Assembly (NCBI GenBank): GCA_028690485.1 | Contig: JAQVBD010000004.1 | Coordinates: forward strand, 1-58,558 | Source: Endomicrobiaceae bacterium | Lineage (GTDB): Bacteria; Elusimicrobiota; Endomicrobiia; Endomicrobiales; Endomicrobiaceae | Length of the DNA: 58,558 nt | Reading direction: 5' to 3' | Shown: one piece after another, positions 40,237-54,580 of the stretch | Numbering within the stretch: position 1 is the stretch's first letter | Layout: each line of letters begins with the position of its first letter | Made by a program: the position numbers and the translations under genes | Notes under the pieces: model-generated | What the model was told of the DNA's origin: nothing | Databases searched by the model: none | The model's input: only the letters and a program-made list of their open reading frames with translations

Positions 40237-41574
40237 TTATTTTGTACTTACCGCAGCAATACTTGCAACACCAAATAATGAAGCAAGGTCTTGATCGGTA
40301 ATTTTAATTTTAATATAAGGCATAAATGTTGATTTTGCTACAGCATCCTCAACTTGGAACCCAACATAACACCAATTGAAAATACCAAGTCTGGCACCAA
40401 CAGTAACATTAGGAGTACTTTTTGATTGAGATGAACTGAAATCAAAAACATCAACATTGAAATATAATTTTTTATAACTTGCATAAATTTTGTCAAAAGG
40501 AGAGAATCCAAAACCAATTCCACCTTTAGATCTCATAGCACCGCCATAAGCTTCAAAATTTTCTGATCTAAATCCAATCAAAGCATCTAATTTGTTTAAT
40601 TTATCTTTTTCGATTTCATCAGTTTTCTCGTCATTTGCGTTGCCAAGATTAGAAACCCCAACATAATAAAATTTATGATTATTTGGTCTGAATCTAATAC
40701 CAAAATCACTGCGGAATCTATCAGCTCTTGGATCAAATCTTCCCATATACTCCCAATCGATTTCAAGCTTGCTTGTTTTTCCCATAACAGTTTGAACTTG
40801 TTCAACAGTTGTTTTAATCTCAGTAACAGTTTGCTTCAATTCTTTAGCCATTTCTTCATCATTTATTAAAGTAGCAAGAGTTCCTTTTCCTTCGCTTATT
40901 TTTGTTACAAGTTCATCAACTTTCATAGAAACTTTCTTTAATTCTAATACTATTGCTCTGATATCATCTTTGTTTTCTCTGGTAACTTCAGATAAATCTG
41001 ATGAAAAATTCTTAAAATTATCAATAACAGCTTCTATGGATTTTTCTTTATTAGCAATTGTTTGACTAACTTTTTTTAAATTAGCAACAGTATCTGATAA
41101 ATTTTTAAAAAATTCTTCATTTATTCCATTAGAAATATTATTTAAAACTGTACCGACTTGTTTTGCTACCGAAGAAACCATCTCTTCAAGAGAAGTGGTT
41201 TCTAAAGCAATTACATTATCGCCATTAACCAGTAATCTGTTTGTTGAACTACCAGGTTTAATATCTATATATTTTGTTCCAATAATTCCCATTGATACTA
41301 TTTGTATCTGTGCATCTGAATACAACTTTATATCGTTATTAATCACAAGAATTATTTTTGCTTTACCATTTTCTAAAATAATATCTTTTACATTACCAAC
41401 ATCTACCCCTGAAATTTTTACCTTTGCTTTTTTAGGAAGGCCGGAAGCGTTAGAAAAATAAGCATTTATCTTATACTTAGAAGTCAAACTAAAATTCCCA
41501 AGTAATGTTATAGTAGCAAGGATTGATAAAATTCCTAAAACTACAAAAAAACCAAGCTTTAATTCATTAGACAC
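40237..41574 (-). CDS. MCE-domain (MlaD-like) lipid-transport protein with beta-barrel-like C-terminal domain
   Basis: A 445-residue protein. A single N-terminal membrane helix (7-29) anchors it in the inner membrane. Residues 33-110 form an MCE domain (YKINAYFSNASGLPKKAKVKIS, VSMGIIGTKYIDIKPGS), as in MlaD. A long amphipathic helical segment (130-275) follows. From about 280 the sequence turns into alternating Tyr/Phe/Gly strands (DFGIRFRPNNHKFYYVGVS, GIGFGFSPFDKIYASYKK, VGARLGIFNWCYVGFQVED) that look like outer-membrane strands, giving a possible bridge from inner to outer membrane. Start GTG with GGAG 7 bases upstream. It follows the MlaF-like ATPase gene by 15 bp. Confidence 0.85.
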   Translation of the reverse strand: MSNELKLGFFVVLGILSILATITLLGNFSLTSKYKINAYFSNASGLPKKAKVKISGVDVGNVKDIILENGKAKIILVINNDIKLYSDAQIQIVSMGIIGTKYIDIKPGSSTNRLLVNGDNVIALETTSLEEMVSSVAKQVGTVLNNISNGINEEFFKNLSDTVANLKKVSQTIANKEKSIEAVIDNFKNFSSDLSEVTRENKDDIRAIVLELKKVSMKVDELVTKISEGKGTLATLINDEEMAKELKQTVTEIKTTVEQVQTVMGKTSKLEIDWEYMGRFDPRADRFRSDFGIRFRPNNHKFYYVGVSNLGNANDEKTDEIEKDKLNKLDALIGFRSENFEAYGGAMRSKGGIGFGFSPFDKIYASYKKLYFNVDVFDFSSSQSKSTPNVTVGARLGIFNWCYVGFQVEDAVAKSTFMPYIKIKITDQDLASLFGVASIAAVSTK

Positions 41575-44703: not shown

Positions 44704-45492
44704 TTAATTTGATTTTTTCTTTTTCTTTTTTTTCTGTTTATTCTGTAATTTACTTTCATATTGAATGTATTGTTCTTGTGATAATAGGTATCTAGTTTTT
44801 CTTTTTTTATCAAATTTAACTTGTTCTATATCGGTAGTTAAATATTTTATATCAGTTAACAGATTATTTATAATATATTCGTTGAAATCTTGTTTTGATA
44901 ATTCATCATCAAGTAATCTTTGTCTTAGTTTCAATTCATTTCCAAGTGCTATAAGTTTGCTTTCTTCTTCCATTTCTAGATATTCTAATTTTGCTTTTTG
45001 AATTTTTGTCAGATTCCATTTAGTTTTTGGATCTCTGAGGTTTTTGCCGGTTACTAAGTAAATTTTATTTGACGAGTTTGAATTAATATTCGAACCATTT
45101 ATATTGTAAATGGTTCCAGCCATTGCTGGTTGACTTAATAAATGCTTCTGGTTGTTATTGTTTTTTATTTTTTTTGTATTTGTAAAACCGGTGCCGGTTA
45201 TGAAATAAACTTTACTTGTTGAGCTCAAGTCATTGCCGGATATACCGGTTATATTATAAATGTTCTTAGATACTAAAGTTGTTTTGTTCTTTGAACTTGT
45301 AAGATTAGTTCCATTTATAAAATAAACTTTATTTATTGAATTTAAATCATTGTTTAAGATGCCGGTTATGTTATAAATGTTTTGAGGTGTAGTAATATTT
45401 TTGCTATTATTTTTTTGTTTAGGAAAAACATTAACACTTAATGTTAATAAAAATAGAATAAATATAAATTTTTTATATATCTTTTTGTTCAT
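44704..45492 (-). CDS. Exported repeat protein with Spy/CpxP-like helical tail
   Basis: A 262-residue protein. After a signal peptide (to about residue 24) come three imperfect repeats (about 38-65, 77-104, 128-153), each starting IYNI-x-G and ending K-[IV]-Y-[FL]-[IV]-x-G, separated by Asn/Lys/Thr linkers; each repeat is itself two copies of a [IV]-Y-x-[IV]-x-G strand. From residue 160 the sequence is helical and charged, with LTKIQKAKLEYLEMEEESKL and LSQEQYIQYESKL, the L-T-x-x-Q pattern of Spy/CpxP periplasmic chaperones. It ends in a poly-Lys tail. The role is unknown; an envelope chaperone or surface-binding protein is a guess. Confidence 0.65.
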   Translation of the reverse strand: MNKKIYKKFIFILFLLTLSVNVFPKQKNNSKNITTPQNIYNITGILNNDLNSINKVYFINGTNLTSSKNKTTLVSKNIYNITGISGNDLSSTSKVYFITGTGFTNTKKIKNNNNQKHLLSQPAMAGTIYNINGSNINSNSSNKIYLVTGKNLRDPKTKWNLTKIQKAKLEYLEMEEESKLIALGNELKLRQRLLDDELSKQDFNEYIINNLLTDIKYLTTDIEQVKFDKKRKTRYLLSQEQYIQYESKLQNKQKKKKKKKSN

Positions 45493-48429: not shown

Positions 48430-48458
48430 TTGACAATAAACATAATGTCTGTTATAAT
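48430..48458 (+). promoter_or_regulatory. Consensus promoter of the small membrane protein gene
   Basis: TTGACA (48430-48435), 17-bp spacer, TATAAT (48453-48458): a perfect housekeeping promoter starting 4 bases after the fba stop codon. A leader of about 55 bases precedes the gene at 48523. Confidence 0.85.
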
Positions 48459-48522: not shown

Positions 48523-48813
48523 ATGGCAAATTATGAATTAAAAGGTGTTTGTGTAGTTTCTTTGTTTAAGAATTTTCCAATAGTATTTGCATTATTGGGA
48601 GCAGTAATCGGAATATTTACATTTTTTATTTTCCCAACAGAATTAGCAGGAAATCTTGGTTTCGGTGCAAGAATTCTTTCTTGGTTGATTTTTATCGTTC
48701 TATACACTGCTATTATGTCAATTGGTATAGTTGCAGTTGCATGGATTTATAATTTTGTTGTCGCTAAAATTGGTAAAGGTGCAGTTATAAAATTAGAACA
48801 AACAGTAGAATAA
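48523..48813 (+). CDS. Small membrane protein, DUF3566-like
   Basis: A 96-residue protein with two hydrophobic segments (about 17-37 and 50-80). It opens with YELKGVCVVSLFKNFPIVF and ends WIYNFVVAKIGKGAVIKLE, an arrangement like DUF3566 membrane proteins (W-x-Y-N-x-V-A-x-x-x-G-G). Function is unknown. A perfect promoter and a strong SD (AAGGGGGA) on one side and a 14-bp terminator on the other make it a monocistronic, probably highly expressed gene. Confidence 0.7.
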   Translation: MANYELKGVCVVSLFKNFPIVFALLGAVIGIFTFFIFPTELAGNLGFGARILSWLIFIVLYTAIMSIGIVAVAWIYNFVVAKIGKGAVIKLEQTVE

Positions 48814-48822
48814 TTTTTTTAC

Positions 48823-48870
48823 ACCGGTTTATTGAGGTTTTTAATATCTCAATAAACCGGTATTTCTTTT
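48823..48870 (+). terminator. Intrinsic terminator after the small membrane protein gene
   Basis: ACCGGTTTATTGAG (48823-48836) pairs perfectly with CTCAATAAACCGGT (48848-48861), an 11-base loop, followed by ATTTCTTTT. The sensor kinase begins only 26 bp later, so its promoter must overlap this region or it depends on read-through. Confidence 0.9.
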
Positions 48871-48886: not shown

Positions 48887-50311
48887 ATGAATCTAAGATT
48901 TAAGCTTACCCTATACATTTCATTCCTATTATTAATTGTTATTATTGGTGTTTCATATAACATTTTTATAGCTCAAAAAAAATTTTTAACTCAACAATTT
49001 TCAGAAAACAGAGAAAGAACTTTTAAAAGTTTTATTTCTATGTGTAATGAAGCAGCTAAAGTAAAAGATGATTTGCAGGTGTACAAGGCTGTATCTTTAG
49101 TAGTTAGTATATATAAACCATCTGCAGTGTATGCCGGATATGTAAATTCAAATAATGTATCAATGTATGTTTCAAGAGATAATAATAAAAATATTGATTC
49201 TGAATTCAAGAGAAGAATTCAAAAGTCTTCAATAGATTTTTCAGAAAAATATACGTCATTAAGCGGAGAACGAATTTGTGAATTTGTTGCTCCCTTATTT
49301 GCCGATGGTATTAATAATGGAACTTTTATTGTCGGATTTTCGCAGGATGAAATGCAGAGGCAAATTAACAAAGGCATTTCTACAATGACTTATCAAATAA
49401 AAGTTGTTTCAACAATAGCAATGTTATTGGCAATACTTCTTGCTAATTTTTTAGGTTATACTTTTGCAAAACCTTTGAAATTATTGACGGATGCTTCAGA
49501 ACAAATAGCAAAGGGAAATTTAGATATAGAAATTAAACTAAATCGAAAAGATGAAATTGGTATACTTTCAACAACTTTTAATAATATGGCAAAGCAGATT
49601 AAAGAGTTAGATTCTATGAAAGACAGCTTTGTATCCAGTGTGTCACATGAATTAAGATCTCCTCTGTCAGCAATTGACGGGTATTGTGATTTGCTTATAG
49701 ATGGTGTCCAAAAAGATTATTCTAAGGAACAACAGTTAAAAGGATTGCAAATAATAAAACAAGCAACTATAAGATTAACAAATTTTATCAATAATATTCT
49801 TGATTTAGCAAAAATAAAAGCAAATAAACTTGAAATTAAAAAAACAAAAACAGATATGCAGTCTTTAGTAATAGAAATAGTTTCTTTATTTCAACCATTA
49901 GCAATTCAACAGCATAAAGCTATTGATTATGTCATTATGGATAAGATTCCATTGGTAGAAATTGATGCGGAAAAAATAAAACAAGTAATAACAAATCTTG
50001 TAAGTAATGCTATGAAATTTACAAAAGAAAATGGAAAGATTATTATTAAGATATTTCCATTTTCACCTGGATATGGAGATAATTATATTGAGGTGTTTGT
50101 ACAGGATGATGGAATCGGAATACCAAAACACCAAGTTGATTTAGTTTTTGAAAAATTTTATCAAGTTCAAGAAGGAGAATTTAAAAGGCCAAAAGGAACA
50201 GGATTGGGATTAACAATAGTATTTGAAATGATAAAGATGCATAAAGGGTATGTTTGGGCAGAAAGTGATTTAGGTAAAGGGACAACTTTTAAATTTGTTT
50301 TACCAAAATAA
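48887..50311 (+). CDS. Membrane sensor histidine kinase
   Basis: A 474-residue two-component kinase. One membrane helix (6-27), a periplasmic sensor region to about 160, a second helix (about 168-188), a HAMP domain (FAKPLKLLTDASEQIAKGNLDI), the dimerisation/phosphoacceptor helix SVSHELRSPLSAIDGY (His254) and a full ATPase domain (N-box LVSNAMKFTKENG, G1 DDGIGI, F-box FEKFYQ, G2 KGTGLGLTIV). The signal is unknown. It heads a run of signalling genes: REC-GGDEF 12 bp on and an OmpR-type regulator after that. Confidence 0.93.
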   Translation: MNLRFKLTLYISFLLLIVIIGVSYNIFIAQKKFLTQQFSENRERTFKSFISMCNEAAKVKDDLQVYKAVSLVVSIYKPSAVYAGYVNSNNVSMYVSRDNNKNIDSEFKRRIQKSSIDFSEKYTSLSGERICEFVAPLFADGINNGTFIVGFSQDEMQRQINKGISTMTYQIKVVSTIAMLLAILLANFLGYTFAKPLKLLTDASEQIAKGNLDIEIKLNRKDEIGILSTTFNNMAKQIKELDSMKDSFVSSVSHELRSPLSAIDGYCDLLIDGVQKDYSKEQQLKGLQIIKQATIRLTNFINNILDLAKIKANKLEIKKTKTDMQSLVIEIVSLFQPLAIQQHKAIDYVIMDKIPLVEIDAEKIKQVITNLVSNAMKFTKENGKIIIKIFPFSPGYGDNYIEVFVQDDGIGIPKHQVDLVFEKFYQVQEGEFKRPKGTGLGLTIVFEMIKMHKGYVWAESDLGKGTTFKFVLPK

Positions 50312-50323
50312 GGATTTAAATTA

Positions 50324-51259
50324 ATGATTTTTAAAATTTTAGTTATTGATGATGAACCATTGCTAAGAGAAATGTTACGAGATATTTTTACAATTGCAGG
50401 GTACAATGTAATAACAGCTGAGAATGGTAAAGAAGGATTAGATAAAGTATATTCTGAATTACCAGATTTTGTAATTTTAGATGGTTCTATGCCGGTTATG
50501 GATGGTTTTGAAGTTTTAACAATATTAAGGAAAGATCCTAAATTTCTAAATTTACCTATAATGATGTTTTCTGCTTTGTCAGGTGAAACTGAACAAATAA
50601 AAGGGCTTAGTTTAGGAGCAGATGATTATATAACAAAACCGTTTAAAACATCTGTTCTTTTAACAAAAGTTAAAAATATTTTAGAAAGAAAAAAACAAAG
50701 TTTAGATGTAAATCCATTAACAGCATTGCCGGGCAATTTATCTATACAACATGATGTAGAAAGAAGAATTGCTGATAAATTGCATTTTTCTCTTCTATAT
50801 ATGGATTTATCTAATTTTAAAAGTTTTAATGATAAATACGGCTTTTATAAAGGTGATGAAGTAATAAAATTTACGGCAGATTTACTGCAAGAAACAATAA
50901 AAAGATTTGGTGTAACATCTGATTTCTTAGGACATATAGGCGGGGATGATTTTGTTATAATATCAGACATAGACAATAGTATAGGCATAGCAGAAAATAT
51001 TATCAAAGTCTTTGATGATGGTATAAAGAAATTTTATGACAAAGAAGATTTGAAAAATGGATATATTATTTCCGTAGATAGAGAAGATAATGTACAAAAG
51101 TTTCCAATAATTACAATTTCTATTAGTATTATTACAACAAATATTGCACATATATCTCATTTTGCTGAAATTTCTAAAAGAGCTTCAGAACTAAAGAAAG
51201 TAGCTAAAAAAAACAATGGCAGTTCTTATGTATTTGAAAGAAGAAAATATAGTAGATAA
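50324..51259 (+). CDS. Response regulator with GGDEF-like output domain
   Basis: A 311-residue protein. The receiver domain (1-120) has the acidic pocket Asp9-Asp10, phosphoacceptor Asp53 (ILDGSMP) and Lys in ITKPFK. Residues 135-305 form a GGDEF-like domain: LTALPGN, YMDLSNFKSFNDKYGFYKGD and the signature reading G-G-D-D-F (206-210). The product-inhibition site (R-x-x-D) reads V-T-S-D, so feedback by c-di-GMP is not expected. It could make c-di-GMP or be a degenerate binding domain; the sequence does not decide. Likely partner of the upstream kinase. Confidence 0.88.
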   Translation: MIFKILVIDDEPLLREMLRDIFTIAGYNVITAENGKEGLDKVYSELPDFVILDGSMPVMDGFEVLTILRKDPKFLNLPIMMFSALSGETEQIKGLSLGADDYITKPFKTSVLLTKVKNILERKKQSLDVNPLTALPGNLSIQHDVERRIADKLHFSLLYMDLSNFKSFNDKYGFYKGDEVIKFTADLLQETIKRFGVTSDFLGHIGGDDFVIISDIDNSIGIAENIIKVFDDGIKKFYDKEDLKNGYIISVDREDNVQKFPIITISISIITTNIAHISHFAEISKRASELKKVAKKNNGSSYVFERRKYSR

Positions 51260-51282
51260 TTTCTACTTATCAAGAGGAGACA

Positions 51283-51984
51283 ATGATTGAAAATAAAATA
51301 ATAATCGTTGATGATGATGAAAATATTAGAGAATTGGTATCTGATGTTTTAGAAGCTGAAAAATTTAAAGTCATTAAATGTTCTAATACTGATGAAGGTT
51401 ATAAAAGAATTTTGAAGTCAAAACCTGATTTGGCAATTCTTGATGTTAAAATGCCGCAAATAGGTGGGATAGAACTTTGTAGACTGTTAAGGGAAAATTT
51501 AGAAACAAAAAAAATTCCTGTAATAATGTTAACAGTTGAATCTACAGAGACAGATAAAATAATCGGTCTAGGTGTGGGTGCAGATGATTATATAACAAAG
51601 CCTTTTAGTAATAAGGAACTTGTCGCACGAGTCAGGGCTTTATTAAGAAGAATTAATAGAACAGCAGAAAATAATAATATTTTTGAAATTGATGATCTTG
51701 TGATGAATTTAGAAGCCAGAACAGTTTCAATTAATTCAAAAGAAATAAAACTCAGACCAAAAGAGTTTGATTTACTTCATATGTTTTTATTAAAGCAAAA
51801 TGTTGTTCTTACAAGAGAATTTATTTTAGAAGATGTTTTTGAATATAATGTAGCTGTTACAACAAGGACAATAGATACACATATTAAAAATTTAAGAAAA
51901 GCTCTAGGTGATTGGGGAGAGAGAGTTGTAACTATCTTTGGAAGAGGATTTAAATTTGTTCCAAGTATTAAGAAAAAAAAATAA
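51283..51984 (+). CDS. OmpR/PhoB-family response regulator
   Basis: A 233-residue transcription factor: receiver domain (1-120) with Asp10-Asp11, phosphoacceptor Asp54 (ILDVKMP) and TKPFSNKEL, then a winged-helix DNA-binding domain (residues 135-228: EIKLRPKEFDLLHMFLLKQNVVLTRE split by family motifs, ending VTTRTIDTHIKNLRKAL and TIFGRGFKFV). It probably answers the kinase two genes upstream and may control this operon or the PorV-TPR genes that follow. Confidence 0.93.
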   Translation: MIENKIIIVDDDENIRELVSDVLEAEKFKVIKCSNTDEGYKRILKSKPDLAILDVKMPQIGGIELCRLLRENLETKKIPVIMLTVESTETDKIIGLGVGADDYITKPFSNKELVARVRALLRRINRTAENNNIFEIDDLVMNLEARTVSINSKEIKLRPKEFDLLHMFLLKQNVVLTREFILEDVFEYNVAVTTRTIDTHIKNLRKALGDWGERVVTIFGRGFKFVPSIKKKK

Positions 51985-51991
51985 AAGTTTT

Positions 51992-51997
51992 GTATAA
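51992..51997 (+). promoter_or_regulatory. Possible -10 element before the PorV-TPR gene
   Basis: TATAAT with TTG just before it, 35 bp upstream of the start codon. The -35 is poor, so it might be an activator-dependent promoter or part of a larger operon. Confidence 0.4.
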
Positions 51998-52031
51998 TCT
52001 GAACTAATACTAAATAAAAAGGATATCTAAG

Positions 52032-54164
52032 ATGTTGCTCAGAAAATTATTGATAGTTGTTTTACTGATAAACTTTGTATGTTATTCAAAAGCATATGCT
52101 ACTGGTAAAATATATTCTTTAAATCCAGATCCTGTTTCTTCTGCTATGGCAGATTCAGGAGTTGCATTAATGTCTGGTTTTATTACAGGAACAATTATTA
52201 ATCCTGCTTCTTCTGTTGGTATATATAGAACAGTTGCTTCTTTGAGTACTTCAAATATTACCGGGGATATTCAGTATAACTTTGGTGGTATTGGTTTTTT
52301 AACATCTATAGGTGTTTTTGGTGCTTCGTTGATGTATGTAGATTATAACATAGATCAATATTATGATAATGAAGGTAATGTCGAAAATTTTGGGCAAACT
52401 AGCGATGTTGCAGCGGTATTAACTTATGCATTGCCTATAAAAAAATATCTTCCGACTTTTATTGATTATGGAGGATTTGGTGCAAATTTAAAAATAATGA
52501 GAAGCACTTTAGCAGATTATATATCTGAATCTATAGCAGTTGATTTCGGTGGACTTTTTGCAGTACCTAAGGTAAAAAATCTAAGTATTGGTTTTGCTTT
52601 TAAAAATATTGGATCTTCTGAAAAGTTTGTTAAAAGAAGTTCAGAACTTCCACAAACAATTGCTCTTGGTCTTGGTTATACAAATACAAATTATTATAAT
52701 TTAAAATTAGCAGTAGATTTTAATGACCAAAAAAATTATGAAGATTATACATCGGTAGGTATTTCTATTAGTCCGGTATATTTTCTATCATTCAGAGCAG
52801 GTCTTAAAATGGGTGGAGAATCTTTGTTAAATAATGCAAGAATGGGTGTTGGTTTAGAATTCCAAGGTGTAAATTTTGACTATTCTTTCATTCCTACATC
52901 TGATTTGAATGCTACTCATAATTTTAATTTAAGTTTTGCTTTCGGTGAATTTTCAGATCAAAAAAAAGCATATGAATATTATTTAAATAATCATTTCAGG
53001 GAAGCAGAAGCTAATTTTTATGCAAAAGATTTTATAAAAGCAAGACAACAATTTGACGACATATTATCTGTTTATCCTGACCACAAACCTTCTCAGGAAT
53101 ATCTCAAAAAAACTGTTGAAGAACTTCAAAAAATTGATGACTATCATTTAGATCTTGTAAATAATTATATGACAAAAGCAGCAAAAGCTTTAGAAAAAAA
53201 TGATGTAGTGACTGCTGATAGATATTATAGAAAAGTTCTAGAACTGGATCCTACTAATAGAATTGCAAAACTTGGTATAGAACAGTCGGAAACTGTTACA
53301 GATAATGTAAAAGTTCAGCAAAGCAGAGCTGAAAATAGCGAAAGAATAGAATATTTATGGAAGAGATACGAAAAGTTTTATAAGAAAGGTGATCTTGTAA
53401 GAGCTAGAGATTCATTAAAATATTTGTTAGATATTGATTCTGAAAATCAGTTAGCAAATGAGAAAATAGTAAATGTAGATAATCAGTTAGCAAAAATTGC
53501 ATCAGACAAGGCTAATGAAATTTACGAACAGGCAATGAAATATTACAACAATGGTAAATATGAAGAAGCTATAAAATATTTTGAAGCAGTTGTAGTTGCA
53601 GCACCTCATAGACTTGATGTGCAGAATTTAATTGAAAAGGCAGAGAAAAATATTCAGCGTATTGCAGAAGATCAAAGATTGTCAGTTCTTGAAGAGGAAC
53701 AAAGTAAAGTCAGAAATCAGTTAATAGATACATTTAATGACGGTCTTACAAGTTATGAAAAAGGGAAACTTGAAGCATCTGTAGTTTATTTCCAGAAAGC
53801 AAAAGAAATTGCAGAAAAATATGAATTTACAGAATATTACAGAAATGCTCAAAATTATATATCAAAGATTAGTTATAATTTGTCTGAAAAATATTATAAG
53901 AAAGGGTTTGATGCATTTAGAAACAACAAGTTTGAACTTGCAGCTAAGTCATATAAAAAATCTTTAGAATATAATCCTGGCAATACTTCAGCAACTTTTG
54001 AATTAGAAAGAGTTGTTGATCAAGTTTCACAAAATTTCTATGAAAAAGGTATGGCTGCTTATAGTAAAAATGAAATGGATAAAGCCAGAGAATATCTAAG
54101 AATGTCATTATATTATAAACCAAATAAAATTGAAGCTCAACGAGCATTGGAAAGAATTAGATAA
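52032..54164 (+). CDS. PorV/UPF0164-like outer-membrane barrel fused to TPR repeats
   Basis: A 710-residue exported protein. Signal peptide to about residue 24 (SKAYATG). Residues 25-310 match the PorV/PorQ-like barrel (LNPDPVSSAMADSGVALMSG, IINPAS, FGANLKIMRS, VGLEFQGVNFDYSF). From about 315 to the end, seven or more TPR-like units (AEANFYAKDFIKARQQFDDIL, AMKYYNNGKYEEAIKYFEAVV, SYKKSLEYNPGN) form a soluble scaffold. In Bacteroidota PorV is the shuttle protein of the type 9 secretion system. The fusion with TPRs suggests a self-contained surface-assembly platform; role inferred. Its stop overlaps the next start by one base. Confidence 0.8.
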   Translation: MLLRKLLIVVLLINFVCYSKAYATGKIYSLNPDPVSSAMADSGVALMSGFITGTIINPASSVGIYRTVASLSTSNITGDIQYNFGGIGFLTSIGVFGASLMYVDYNIDQYYDNEGNVENFGQTSDVAAVLTYALPIKKYLPTFIDYGGFGANLKIMRSTLADYISESIAVDFGGLFAVPKVKNLSIGFAFKNIGSSEKFVKRSSELPQTIALGLGYTNTNYYNLKLAVDFNDQKNYEDYTSVGISISPVYFLSFRAGLKMGGESLLNNARMGVGLEFQGVNFDYSFIPTSDLNATHNFNLSFAFGEFSDQKKAYEYYLNNHFREAEANFYAKDFIKARQQFDDILSVYPDHKPSQEYLKKTVEELQKIDDYHLDLVNNYMTKAAKALEKNDVVTADRYYRKVLELDPTNRIAKLGIEQSETVTDNVKVQQSRAENSERIEYLWKRYEKFYKKGDLVRARDSLKYLLDIDSENQLANEKIVNVDNQLAKIASDKANEIYEQAMKYYNNGKYEEAIKYFEAVVVAAPHRLDVQNLIEKAEKNIQRIAEDQRLSVLEEEQSKVRNQLIDTFNDGLTSYEKGKLEASVVYFQKAKEIAEKYEFTEYYRNAQNYISKISYNLSEKYYKKGFDAFRNNKFELAAKSYKKSLEYNPGNTSATFELERVVDQVSQNFYEKGMAAYSKNEMDKAREYLRMSLYYKPNKIEAQRALERIR

Positions 54165-54580
54165 TGAAAAAAGCATTTTTAATTTATATCTTTTTTATTT
54201 GTTGCGTGTCTGTTGCAAATGCAGATATTAAAGTTTATCCTAATCCTTGGATACCTGAATCCGGAGTGTCACAAAGTTCAACAGGTGATACAAAAAAACA
54301 TGGAAGTTTGTATGCTGACGGATGGATAAAATTTAAAGGTGTACAAACAGAAACCGGAACATTAAAAATTTATGATGTTGTGGGTAATTTGATTAAAACT
54401 ATAAATTGGAAAGTTCCAGAAAATATACCATTACCAAGTACAACAACTGAAACTAACGATATAGTTCATTGGGATGGCAGAGATAATTATTATAATTATG
54501 TAGGAAGCGGAGTATATATCTGGATTATAAAAGAAGATAATGGTAAAAAATATAATGGTAAAGTAGTAGTTATAAGATAG
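54164..54580 (+). CDS. Small exported protein with FlgD-Ig-like domain
   Basis: A 138-residue protein: signal peptide (to VANAD), then directly IKVYPNPWIPESG, followed by an Ig-like fold (KFKGVQTETGTLKIYDVVGNLI, VHWDGRDNYYNYVGSGVYIWII, NGKKYNGKVVVIR). The Y-P-N-P opening, W-D-G-R-D-N centre and G-x-Y-x-[WF]-x-I end are the pattern of FlgD-Ig and type 9 sorting domains, which normally sit at the C-terminus of large surface proteins. Here the domain is the whole mature protein. Its start overlaps the PorV-TPR stop (TAATG), which implies partnership with that barrel. Confidence 0.8.
   Translation: MKKAFLIYIFFICCVSVANADIKVYPNPWIPESGVSQSSTGDTKKHGSLYADGWIKFKGVQTETGTLKIYDVVGNLIKTINWKVPENIPLPSTTTETNDIVHWDGRDNYYNYVGSGVYIWIIKEDNGKKYNGKVVVIR

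What the first reader, a model, noticed from the sequence alone, without database searches (positions are those of the whole stretch)
48887..54580. Signalling genes coupled to a PorV-TPR barrel and a stand-alone sorting-domain-like protein
Kinase, REC-GGDEF, OmpR-type regulator, PorV-like barrel with a long TPR tail, and a 138-residue exported protein that is nothing but a FlgD-Ig/type-9-like domain lie in one direction; the last two overlap by one base. In type 9 secretion PorV meets such domains as cargo tags on big proteins. Here the tag-like domain is a separate protein beside a barrel that carries its own scaffold, and no other type 9 genes are visible. This may be an undescribed, regulated surface-assembly or secretion module. 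Sequence shows order and domains; function is inference.
Basis: partly seen in the sequence, partly recalled or inferred. Interest (0 to 1): 0.65.

Follow-up and report, generated by a model that had tools for sequence, protein, structure and literature searches.

The report
Surface barrel with a free tag

Summary
HK, REC-GGDEF, OmpR/PhoB-type regulator, a 14-strand PorV/FadL-like barrel with a TPR tail, and a 138-aa exported tag domain lie co-directionally at 48887-54580; the last two overlap by one base. The pair is conserved: 30 of 33 Endomicrobiaceae genomes with this barrel have the tag gene beside it, and all 7 other genomes of the order have a barrel-tag neighbourhood. In two relatives the same tag is the C-terminus of a neighbouring 1319- or 1464-aa secreted protein, so it really is a type-9-like C-terminal domain that here stands alone.

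The reading "no type 9 genes, hence a separate module" fails. The genome encodes a SprA/Sov homolog, further PorV-family barrels and tagged secreted enzymes. SprA homologs occur in 231 of 251 Elusimicrobiota genomes. PorU's catalytic part and the GldL/M/N motor were not found, though the motor searches lacked a positive control.

Best reading: a dedicated carrier/anchor barrel with a minimal, permanently bound tag partner, inside a divergent T9SS-like export system, possibly sensing its state through the linked two-component genes (compare PorQ-PorZ, and PorA-PorXY-SigP). Binding, export and signalling are inferred. New variant of a known kind.

The parts
48430..48458 (+). sigma-70 promoter-like site (12/12 match) upstream of the 96-aa membrane protein gene
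   Evidence: consensus match only; such sites are about as frequent as in shuffles
48523..48813 (+). 96-aa membrane protein, no family; syntenic with the block in nearly all relatives
48823..48861 (+). strong hairpin, terminator-like, between the 96-aa gene and the kinase gene
48887..50311 (+). membrane histidine kinase (HAMP-HisKA-HATPase_c)
50324..51259 (+). REC-GGDEF response regulator (signature GGDDF)
51283..51984 (+). OmpR/PhoB-type response regulator
52032..54164 (+). PorV/PorQ-like outer-membrane barrel (residues about 30-305, 14 predicted strands) with C-terminal TPR superhelix (about 310-710)
54164..54580 (+). stand-alone type-9-like C-terminal-domain protein (signal peptide + one Ig/FlgD-like beta-sandwich)

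Best explanation
The pair is a dedicated carrier/anchor barrel (PorV/PorQ-like, fused to its own periplasmic TPR scaffold) and its cognate minimal substrate, a CTD (sorting-tag domain) with no cargo attached. Both belong to a divergent T9SS-like export system of Elusimicrobiota whose SprA/Sov-like pore is encoded elsewhere in the genome. Most likely sequence of events: both proteins cross the inner membrane by Sec. The barrel inserts in the outer membrane with its TPR tail in the periplasm, where it does the job of the separate TPR scaffold SprE/PorW of Bacteroidota. The tag protein passes through the SprA-like pore (or, being small, without it) and stays bound, uncleaved, to the barrel's outer loops, as PorZ does on PorQ. 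This gives a constitutively occupied barrel that works as a surface anchor, plug or status gauge. Its genes are probably transcribed with a kinase, a REC-GGDEF protein and an OmpR-type regulator (plus a sigma factor in many relatives), so occupancy or export state could be read out or controlled by these, much as the small CTD protein PorA acts on PorXY-SigP in Porphyromonas gingivalis. Shown here: gene order and conservation, homology of barrel and tag, SprA homolog, tagged enzymes. Inferred: co-transcription, binding, export route, retention and signalling.
For: Barrel: best PDB fold matches are PorV chains 8gl6_F (E 5e-11) and 6h3i_F (E 1.5e-10), 14 strands then TPR helices; profile also hits PorV 6h3i by sequence (E 4e-6) and the protein hits NCBIfam PorQ (E 4e-11, below cut-off). 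Tag: copies in relatives exceed the Por_Secre_tail cut-off; best PDB sequence hit is the CTD of PorZ, 5m11 residues 688-750 (E 0.004, marginal); Lys six residues from the C-terminus in 26 of 28 and Arg in 2, and an invariant Gly74, in line with the CTD features described as functional (PMC10994853, PMC11285876). Pairing: adjacent in 30 of 33 family genomes and in order-level genomes. In G078 and G092 the same domain is the C-terminus of a neighbouring 1464- or 1319-aa secreted protein. System: SprA homolog L090:6777-12326 (TIGR04189 113 bits; profile hits only SprA in PDB, E 2e-19). Further PorV-family barrels next to CTD-tagged proteins in the same genome: a barrel beside two M6 metalloproteases, and a barrel beside a 407-aa tagged protein. 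Precedents: PorQ anchors PorZ (PMC5562754); PorA to PorXY-SigP and a 112-aa CTD protein Fjoh_0547 (PMC7712824); dedicated carriers for type B substrates (PMC12618676, PMC12635249); SprE as a TPR scaffold (PMC10994853).
Against: No physical interaction has been shown; the fused AF2 model came back without coordinates or PAE, so the interface could not be judged. The window tag protein itself misses the Por_Secre_tail cut-off by 0.6 bit, and the barrel is far below PorQ's cut-off. Three family genomes have the barrel without a detectable tag gene, and some have the barrel without a SprA hit (G046, G058, G062, G076). No motor (GldL/M/N) was found to drive a type 9 cycle, so the energy source is unknown. 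The signalling role rests on gene linkage alone.
Confidence: 0.55

Rival explanations
1. Periplasmic pair: the free Ig domain never leaves the periplasm but binds the TPR tail, as a structural or chaperone subunit of an outer-membrane assembly scaffold.
For: TPR arrays commonly bind partner proteins (own knowledge); the tag lacks any cargo that would need export; Sec-type signal peptide only.
Against: The domain keeps CTD hallmarks and is the C-terminal tag of large secreted proteins in two relatives; barrel homologs in Bacteroidota bind CTDs with their outer loops (PMC10994853).
Confidence: 0.2
2. c-di-GMP-regulated exopolysaccharide exporter: barrel + TPR + GGDEF resembles BcsC/PgaA/PelB/AlgK-E; the Ig protein is an accessory subunit.
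For: TPR plus outer-membrane barrel plus REC-GGDEF in one block; established architecture of EPS exporters (own knowledge).
Against: Domain order is reversed (barrel first), barrel fold is PorV/FadL rather than an EPS porin, no synthase, glycosyltransferase or PilZ gene seen in the conserved block, GGDDF instead of GGDEF.
Confidence: 0.07
3. Relict: the free tag is the left-over C-terminus of an ancestral large cargo; the cargo part was lost and the pair is decaying.
For: Large tagged neighbours occur in G078 and G092; the barrel gene is broken in some reduced flagellate endosymbionts (L065-L067).
Against: Stand-alone form conserved in about 30 family genomes and six order-level genomes with its own signal peptide; dN/dS about 0.05, similar to the barrel; often start/stop overlap.
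Confidence: 0.08
4. One reading: an independent new secretion or surface-assembly machine unrelated to a type 9 pore.
For: No motor and no PorU found.
Against: SprA homolog, further PorV barrels and tagged cargo in the same genome; SprA in 231 of 251 genomes of the phylum.
Confidence: 0.1

Closest known systems
PorQ-PorZ (and PorV-PorU) attachment complex of Porphyromonas gingivalis
   Same: An outer-membrane barrel holds a non-cleaved CTD protein at the cell surface (PMC5562754); the window barrel's best NCBIfam hit is PorQ and the tag profile's best PDB sequence hit is PorZ's CTD.
   Different: Barrel carries about 400 residues of TPR; partner is the CTD alone, without PorZ's propellers; no PorU found; scores below curated cut-offs.
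PorA-PorXY-SigP regulation of the P. gingivalis T9SS
   Same: Small CTD protein linked to a kinase, regulator and sigma factor that control secretion genes; PorA's CTD binds PorV (PMC7712824). Here kinase, regulator and, in relatives, a sigma-70 factor lie next to barrel and tag.
   Different: Linkage here is by gene order only; PorA has an extra FimH-like domain; the regulator here is OmpR/PhoB type.
Type B substrate / dedicated PorP/SprF-like carrier pairs of Flavobacterium johnsoniae
   Same: Barrel and its own tagged partner are neighbouring genes; carrier keeps substrate at the surface (PMC12618676, PMC12635249).
   Different: Tag is type-A-like (TIGR04183), the partner has no cargo, and the barrel is PorV-like with a TPR tail.
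SprE/PorW TPR scaffold of the extended T9SS translocon
   Same: TPR scaffold on the periplasmic side of SprA-PorV (PMC10994853).
   Different: There a separate lipoprotein; here TPR fused to the barrel. Homology of the TPR parts was not tested.
Fjoh_0547, 112-aa CTD protein of F. johnsoniae
   Same: Protein hardly larger than a CTD, exported (cited in PMC7712824).
   Different: Whether it has a barrel partner gene was not examined here.

Membership tests
Type IX secretion system (T9SS) | SprA/Sov translocon | tested here: met
   L090:6777-12326 in the same genome: TIGR04189 E 6e-33, 113 bits (cut-off 200, so not an equivalog call), collinear; profile of 7 homologs hits only SprA in PDB, E 2e-19; 231 of 251 phylum genomes
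Type IX secretion system (T9SS) | PorV-family carrier barrel | tested here: met
   Two barrels of the genome exceed the PorV_fam cut-off (118 and 186 bits versus 90); window barrel matches PorV by fold
Type IX secretion system (T9SS) | Secreted proteins with CTD sorting tag | tested here: met
   Por_Secre_tail at or over cut-off on M6 peptidases and a GH81 enzyme
Type IX secretion system (T9SS) | GldL/GldM (PorL/PorM) motor and GldN (PorN) | tested here: inconclusive
   GldM 0 of 26, GldN 0 of 26, GldL only noise; no genome known to hold them was in the search
Type IX secretion system (T9SS) | PorU sortase | tested here: not met
   NF033707 matches lie almost all in the C-terminal tail (about residues 940-1094), a few reaching back to 836; none over cut-off in 21 genomes
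PorV/PorQ family (NF033709, NF033711) | score over curated cut-off | tested here: not met
   window barrel: PorQ 42.6 bits versus 220; PorV_fam not reported
PorV/PorQ family (NF033709, NF033711) | 14-strand FadL/PorV fold | tested here: met
   AF2 model 14 strands, pLDDT 82.6; Foldseek 8gl6_F and 6h3i_F top
T9SS type A CTD (TIGR04183) | score over curated cut-off | tested here: inconclusive
   window protein 22.4 versus 23 bits; several orthologs over cut-off, 26-30 bits
T9SS type A CTD (TIGR04183) | conserved Lys near C-terminus and conserved Gly of loop beta3-beta4 | tested here: met
   Lys in 26 of 28, Arg in 2; Gly74 invariant; the equivalence to the published motif positions is judged from sequence only
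T9SS type A CTD (TIGR04183) | located at the C-terminus of a cargo protein | tested here: not met
   stand-alone in the window; C-terminal in G078 and G092
TPR-barrel exopolysaccharide exporters (BcsC, PgaA, PelB) | TPR N-terminal to barrel, adjacent synthase genes | tested here: not met
   barrel precedes TPR; no synthase seen in the conserved block

The most novel reading that the evidence does not exclude
Elusimicrobiota run a phylum-wide, SprA-based type-9-like export system without the PorL/M motor and PorU sortase, using several dedicated PorV-like carriers; one carrier fused to a TPR scaffold is permanently loaded with a cargo-less tag and serves as a built-in export gauge that signals to its own kinase/regulator operon.
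Probability: 0.2. Interest if true: 0.85.

Novelty: new variant of a known kind. Interest (0 to 1): 0.6.

Why it matters
Reviews place the T9SS in Bacteroidota (PMC10202324, PMC7463736) or the Fibrobacteres-Bacteroidetes-Chlorobi group (PMC11205867). A SprA homolog in nearly every Elusimicrobiota genome, with PorV-like carriers and tagged enzymes, would extend the pore-carrier-tag mechanism to a separate phylum and raise the question of what powers it if the rotary motor is missing. The conserved barrel-plus-free-tag pair is a compact natural test of how carrier barrels recognise tags, and whether a tag-bound carrier can act as a signal.

Tried and rejected
First mixed alignment for the fused model misplaced the tag rows on the barrel (A3); rebuilt as A4. 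The fused AF2 model (read-through of L055, where barrel and tag are in frame) gave strands in the tag region, but no coordinates or PAE were returned, so nothing is claimed about docking. Foldseek on the fused model added nothing beyond PorV. GldL weak hits, including one in the window at 40966-41205 (E 0.06), were treated as noise because the same search rings in Bacillus, Lactococcus and archaea. An alternative as an exopolysaccharide exporter was considered and set low. Co-occurrence of barrel and SprA (Fisher p 4e-8 over 77 genomes, 0.015 in the 35 genomes at least 90% complete) is not used as strong evidence because shared ancestry and genome reduction in endosymbionts confound it.
Full report
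**What is there.** Five co-directional genes at 48887-54580 encode a histidine kinase, a REC-GGDEF protein, an OmpR/PhoB-type regulator, a 710-aa barrel-TPR protein and a 138-aa exported protein. Gaps are 12, 23 and 47 nt and then a 1-base overlap (TAATG). A terminator-like hairpin separates the kinase gene from the upstream 96-aa gene, and an 11/12 promoter-like site follows the tag gene (consensus matches only). The block looks like one transcription unit; this is inference.

**Where it is.** The window is C17 of a 1.63-Mb, 122-contig genome, 96% complete. The family is therefore Endomicrobiaceae, phylum Elusimicrobiota.

**The barrel.** The AF2 model (pLDDT 82.6, pTM 0.45) has 14 strands followed by TPR helices. 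The best solved structures by fold are PorV in the T9SS translocon, 8gl6_F and 6h3i_F. By sequence the profile reaches PorV 6h3i at E 4e-6, and NCBIfam's best barrel hit is PorQ, far below cut-off. A paralog of the same layout lies on C114 beside FHA/beta-propeller, PP2C and single-REC genes.

**The tag.** Twenty-eight aligned copies share PNPW..P, an invariant Gly74, SG.Y.W and a C-terminal Arg. Six residues from the end is Lys in 26 copies and Arg in 2. Published work names a near-C-terminal Lys and a loop Gly as important in CTDs (PMC10994853, PMC11285876); that these are the same positions is my reading of the sequence. Orthologs exceed the Por_Secre_tail cut-off, while the window copy is 0.6 bit short. 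The best PDB sequence hit is the CTD of PorZ at a marginal E of 0.004.

**Conservation of the pair.** Of 33 family genomes with this barrel, 30 have the tag gene beside it; the exceptions are G039, G056 and G058. Outside the family, all 7 genomes of the order have a barrel-tag neighbourhood. Four show the stand-alone tag in the same block (L142, L145, L148, L150), and two show it next to the second barrel paralog (L147, L152). In G078 the neighbouring gene is a 1464-aa fibronectin-type protein ending in the same domain. In class-level genome G092 a 1319-aa neighbour ends in it. The domain is thus a real C-terminal tag that exists alone in most of the order. The kinase, REC-GGDEF, regulator and, in many genomes, a sigma-70 factor travel with it.

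**Type 9 context.** The own genome has a SprA/Sov homolog of 1849 aa. A profile of seven homologs finds only SprA in the PDB, E 2e-19, with the next hit at 0.36. SprA matches occur in 40 of 77 family genomes, 19 of 19 other order and class genomes tested and 231 of 251 phylum genomes at least 85% complete. The own genome also has PorV-family barrels beside tagged proteins: a barrel next to two M6 metalloproteases on C28, and a barrel next to a 407-aa tagged protein on C30, plus a tagged GH81 enzyme on C10.

**What was not found.** PorU's catalytic part was not matched in 21 genomes. GldM and GldN gave nothing and GldL only noise in 26 genomes. No genome known to hold the motor was in those searches, so its absence is not proven. 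The held literature names no T9SS in Elusimicrobia (full text of open papers only).

**Interpretation.** The simplest account is a carrier/anchor barrel with its own minimal tag partner inside a divergent SprA-based system. PorQ anchoring PorZ, type B substrates with dedicated carriers, and PorA acting on PorXY-SigP are the closest models (PMC5562754, PMC12618676, PMC12635249, PMC7712824). A TPR scaffold on the periplasmic side of SprA-PorV is known as SprE (PMC10994853), so the fused TPR may replace it. No step of binding, export or signalling has been shown. Because the PorU test was not met and the motor test is inconclusive, I do not file the system as a T9SS; I call it T9SS-like.

Noticed in passing
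L090:6777-12326 (-); phylum-wide search: SprA/Sov homolog in the own genome and in 231 of 251 Elusimicrobiota genomes at least 85% complete, a phylum where the held literature does not describe a T9SS.
   Followed up: partly
L096:3589-9592 (C28): PorV-family barrel followed by two M6 metalloproteases that each end in a Por_Secre_tail domain.
   Followed up: partly
L072 and L098 (C114, C30): Second barrel-TPR paralog in a block with FHA/beta-propeller, PP2C and REC genes. Contigs C30 and C114 appear to overlap and join, putting a tagged 407-aa protein and another barrel upstream.
   Followed up: partly
window 50324-51259 and homologs: The GGDEF signature is GGDDF in all 21 homologs in which it was found, so cyclase activity is uncertain.
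   Followed up: no
L065, L066, L067: Barrel-TPR gene interrupted or fragmented in flagellate endosymbionts (Endomicrobiellum-type genomes G009, G041, G029), while neighbours persist.
   Followed up: no
L048:10635-14093 and L051:4006-7380: A secreted ankyrin-repeat protein of about 1150 aa lies directly downstream of the tag gene in two termite-gut Endomicrobium genomes.
   Followed up: no
L054, L055, L059, L060 downstream of the tag gene: Large secreted proteins with YD/Rhs-like repeats by eye (771-993 aa) follow the tag gene in several Endomicrobium and Endomicrobiellum genomes; the one scanned has no Pfam hit.
   Followed up: no
window 44704-45492 (-): 262-aa ORF with repeated YNITG/YFITG motifs and a poly-lysine end; no family match, only 46% identical in the sister species while neighbours are 79-91%.
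   Followed up: no
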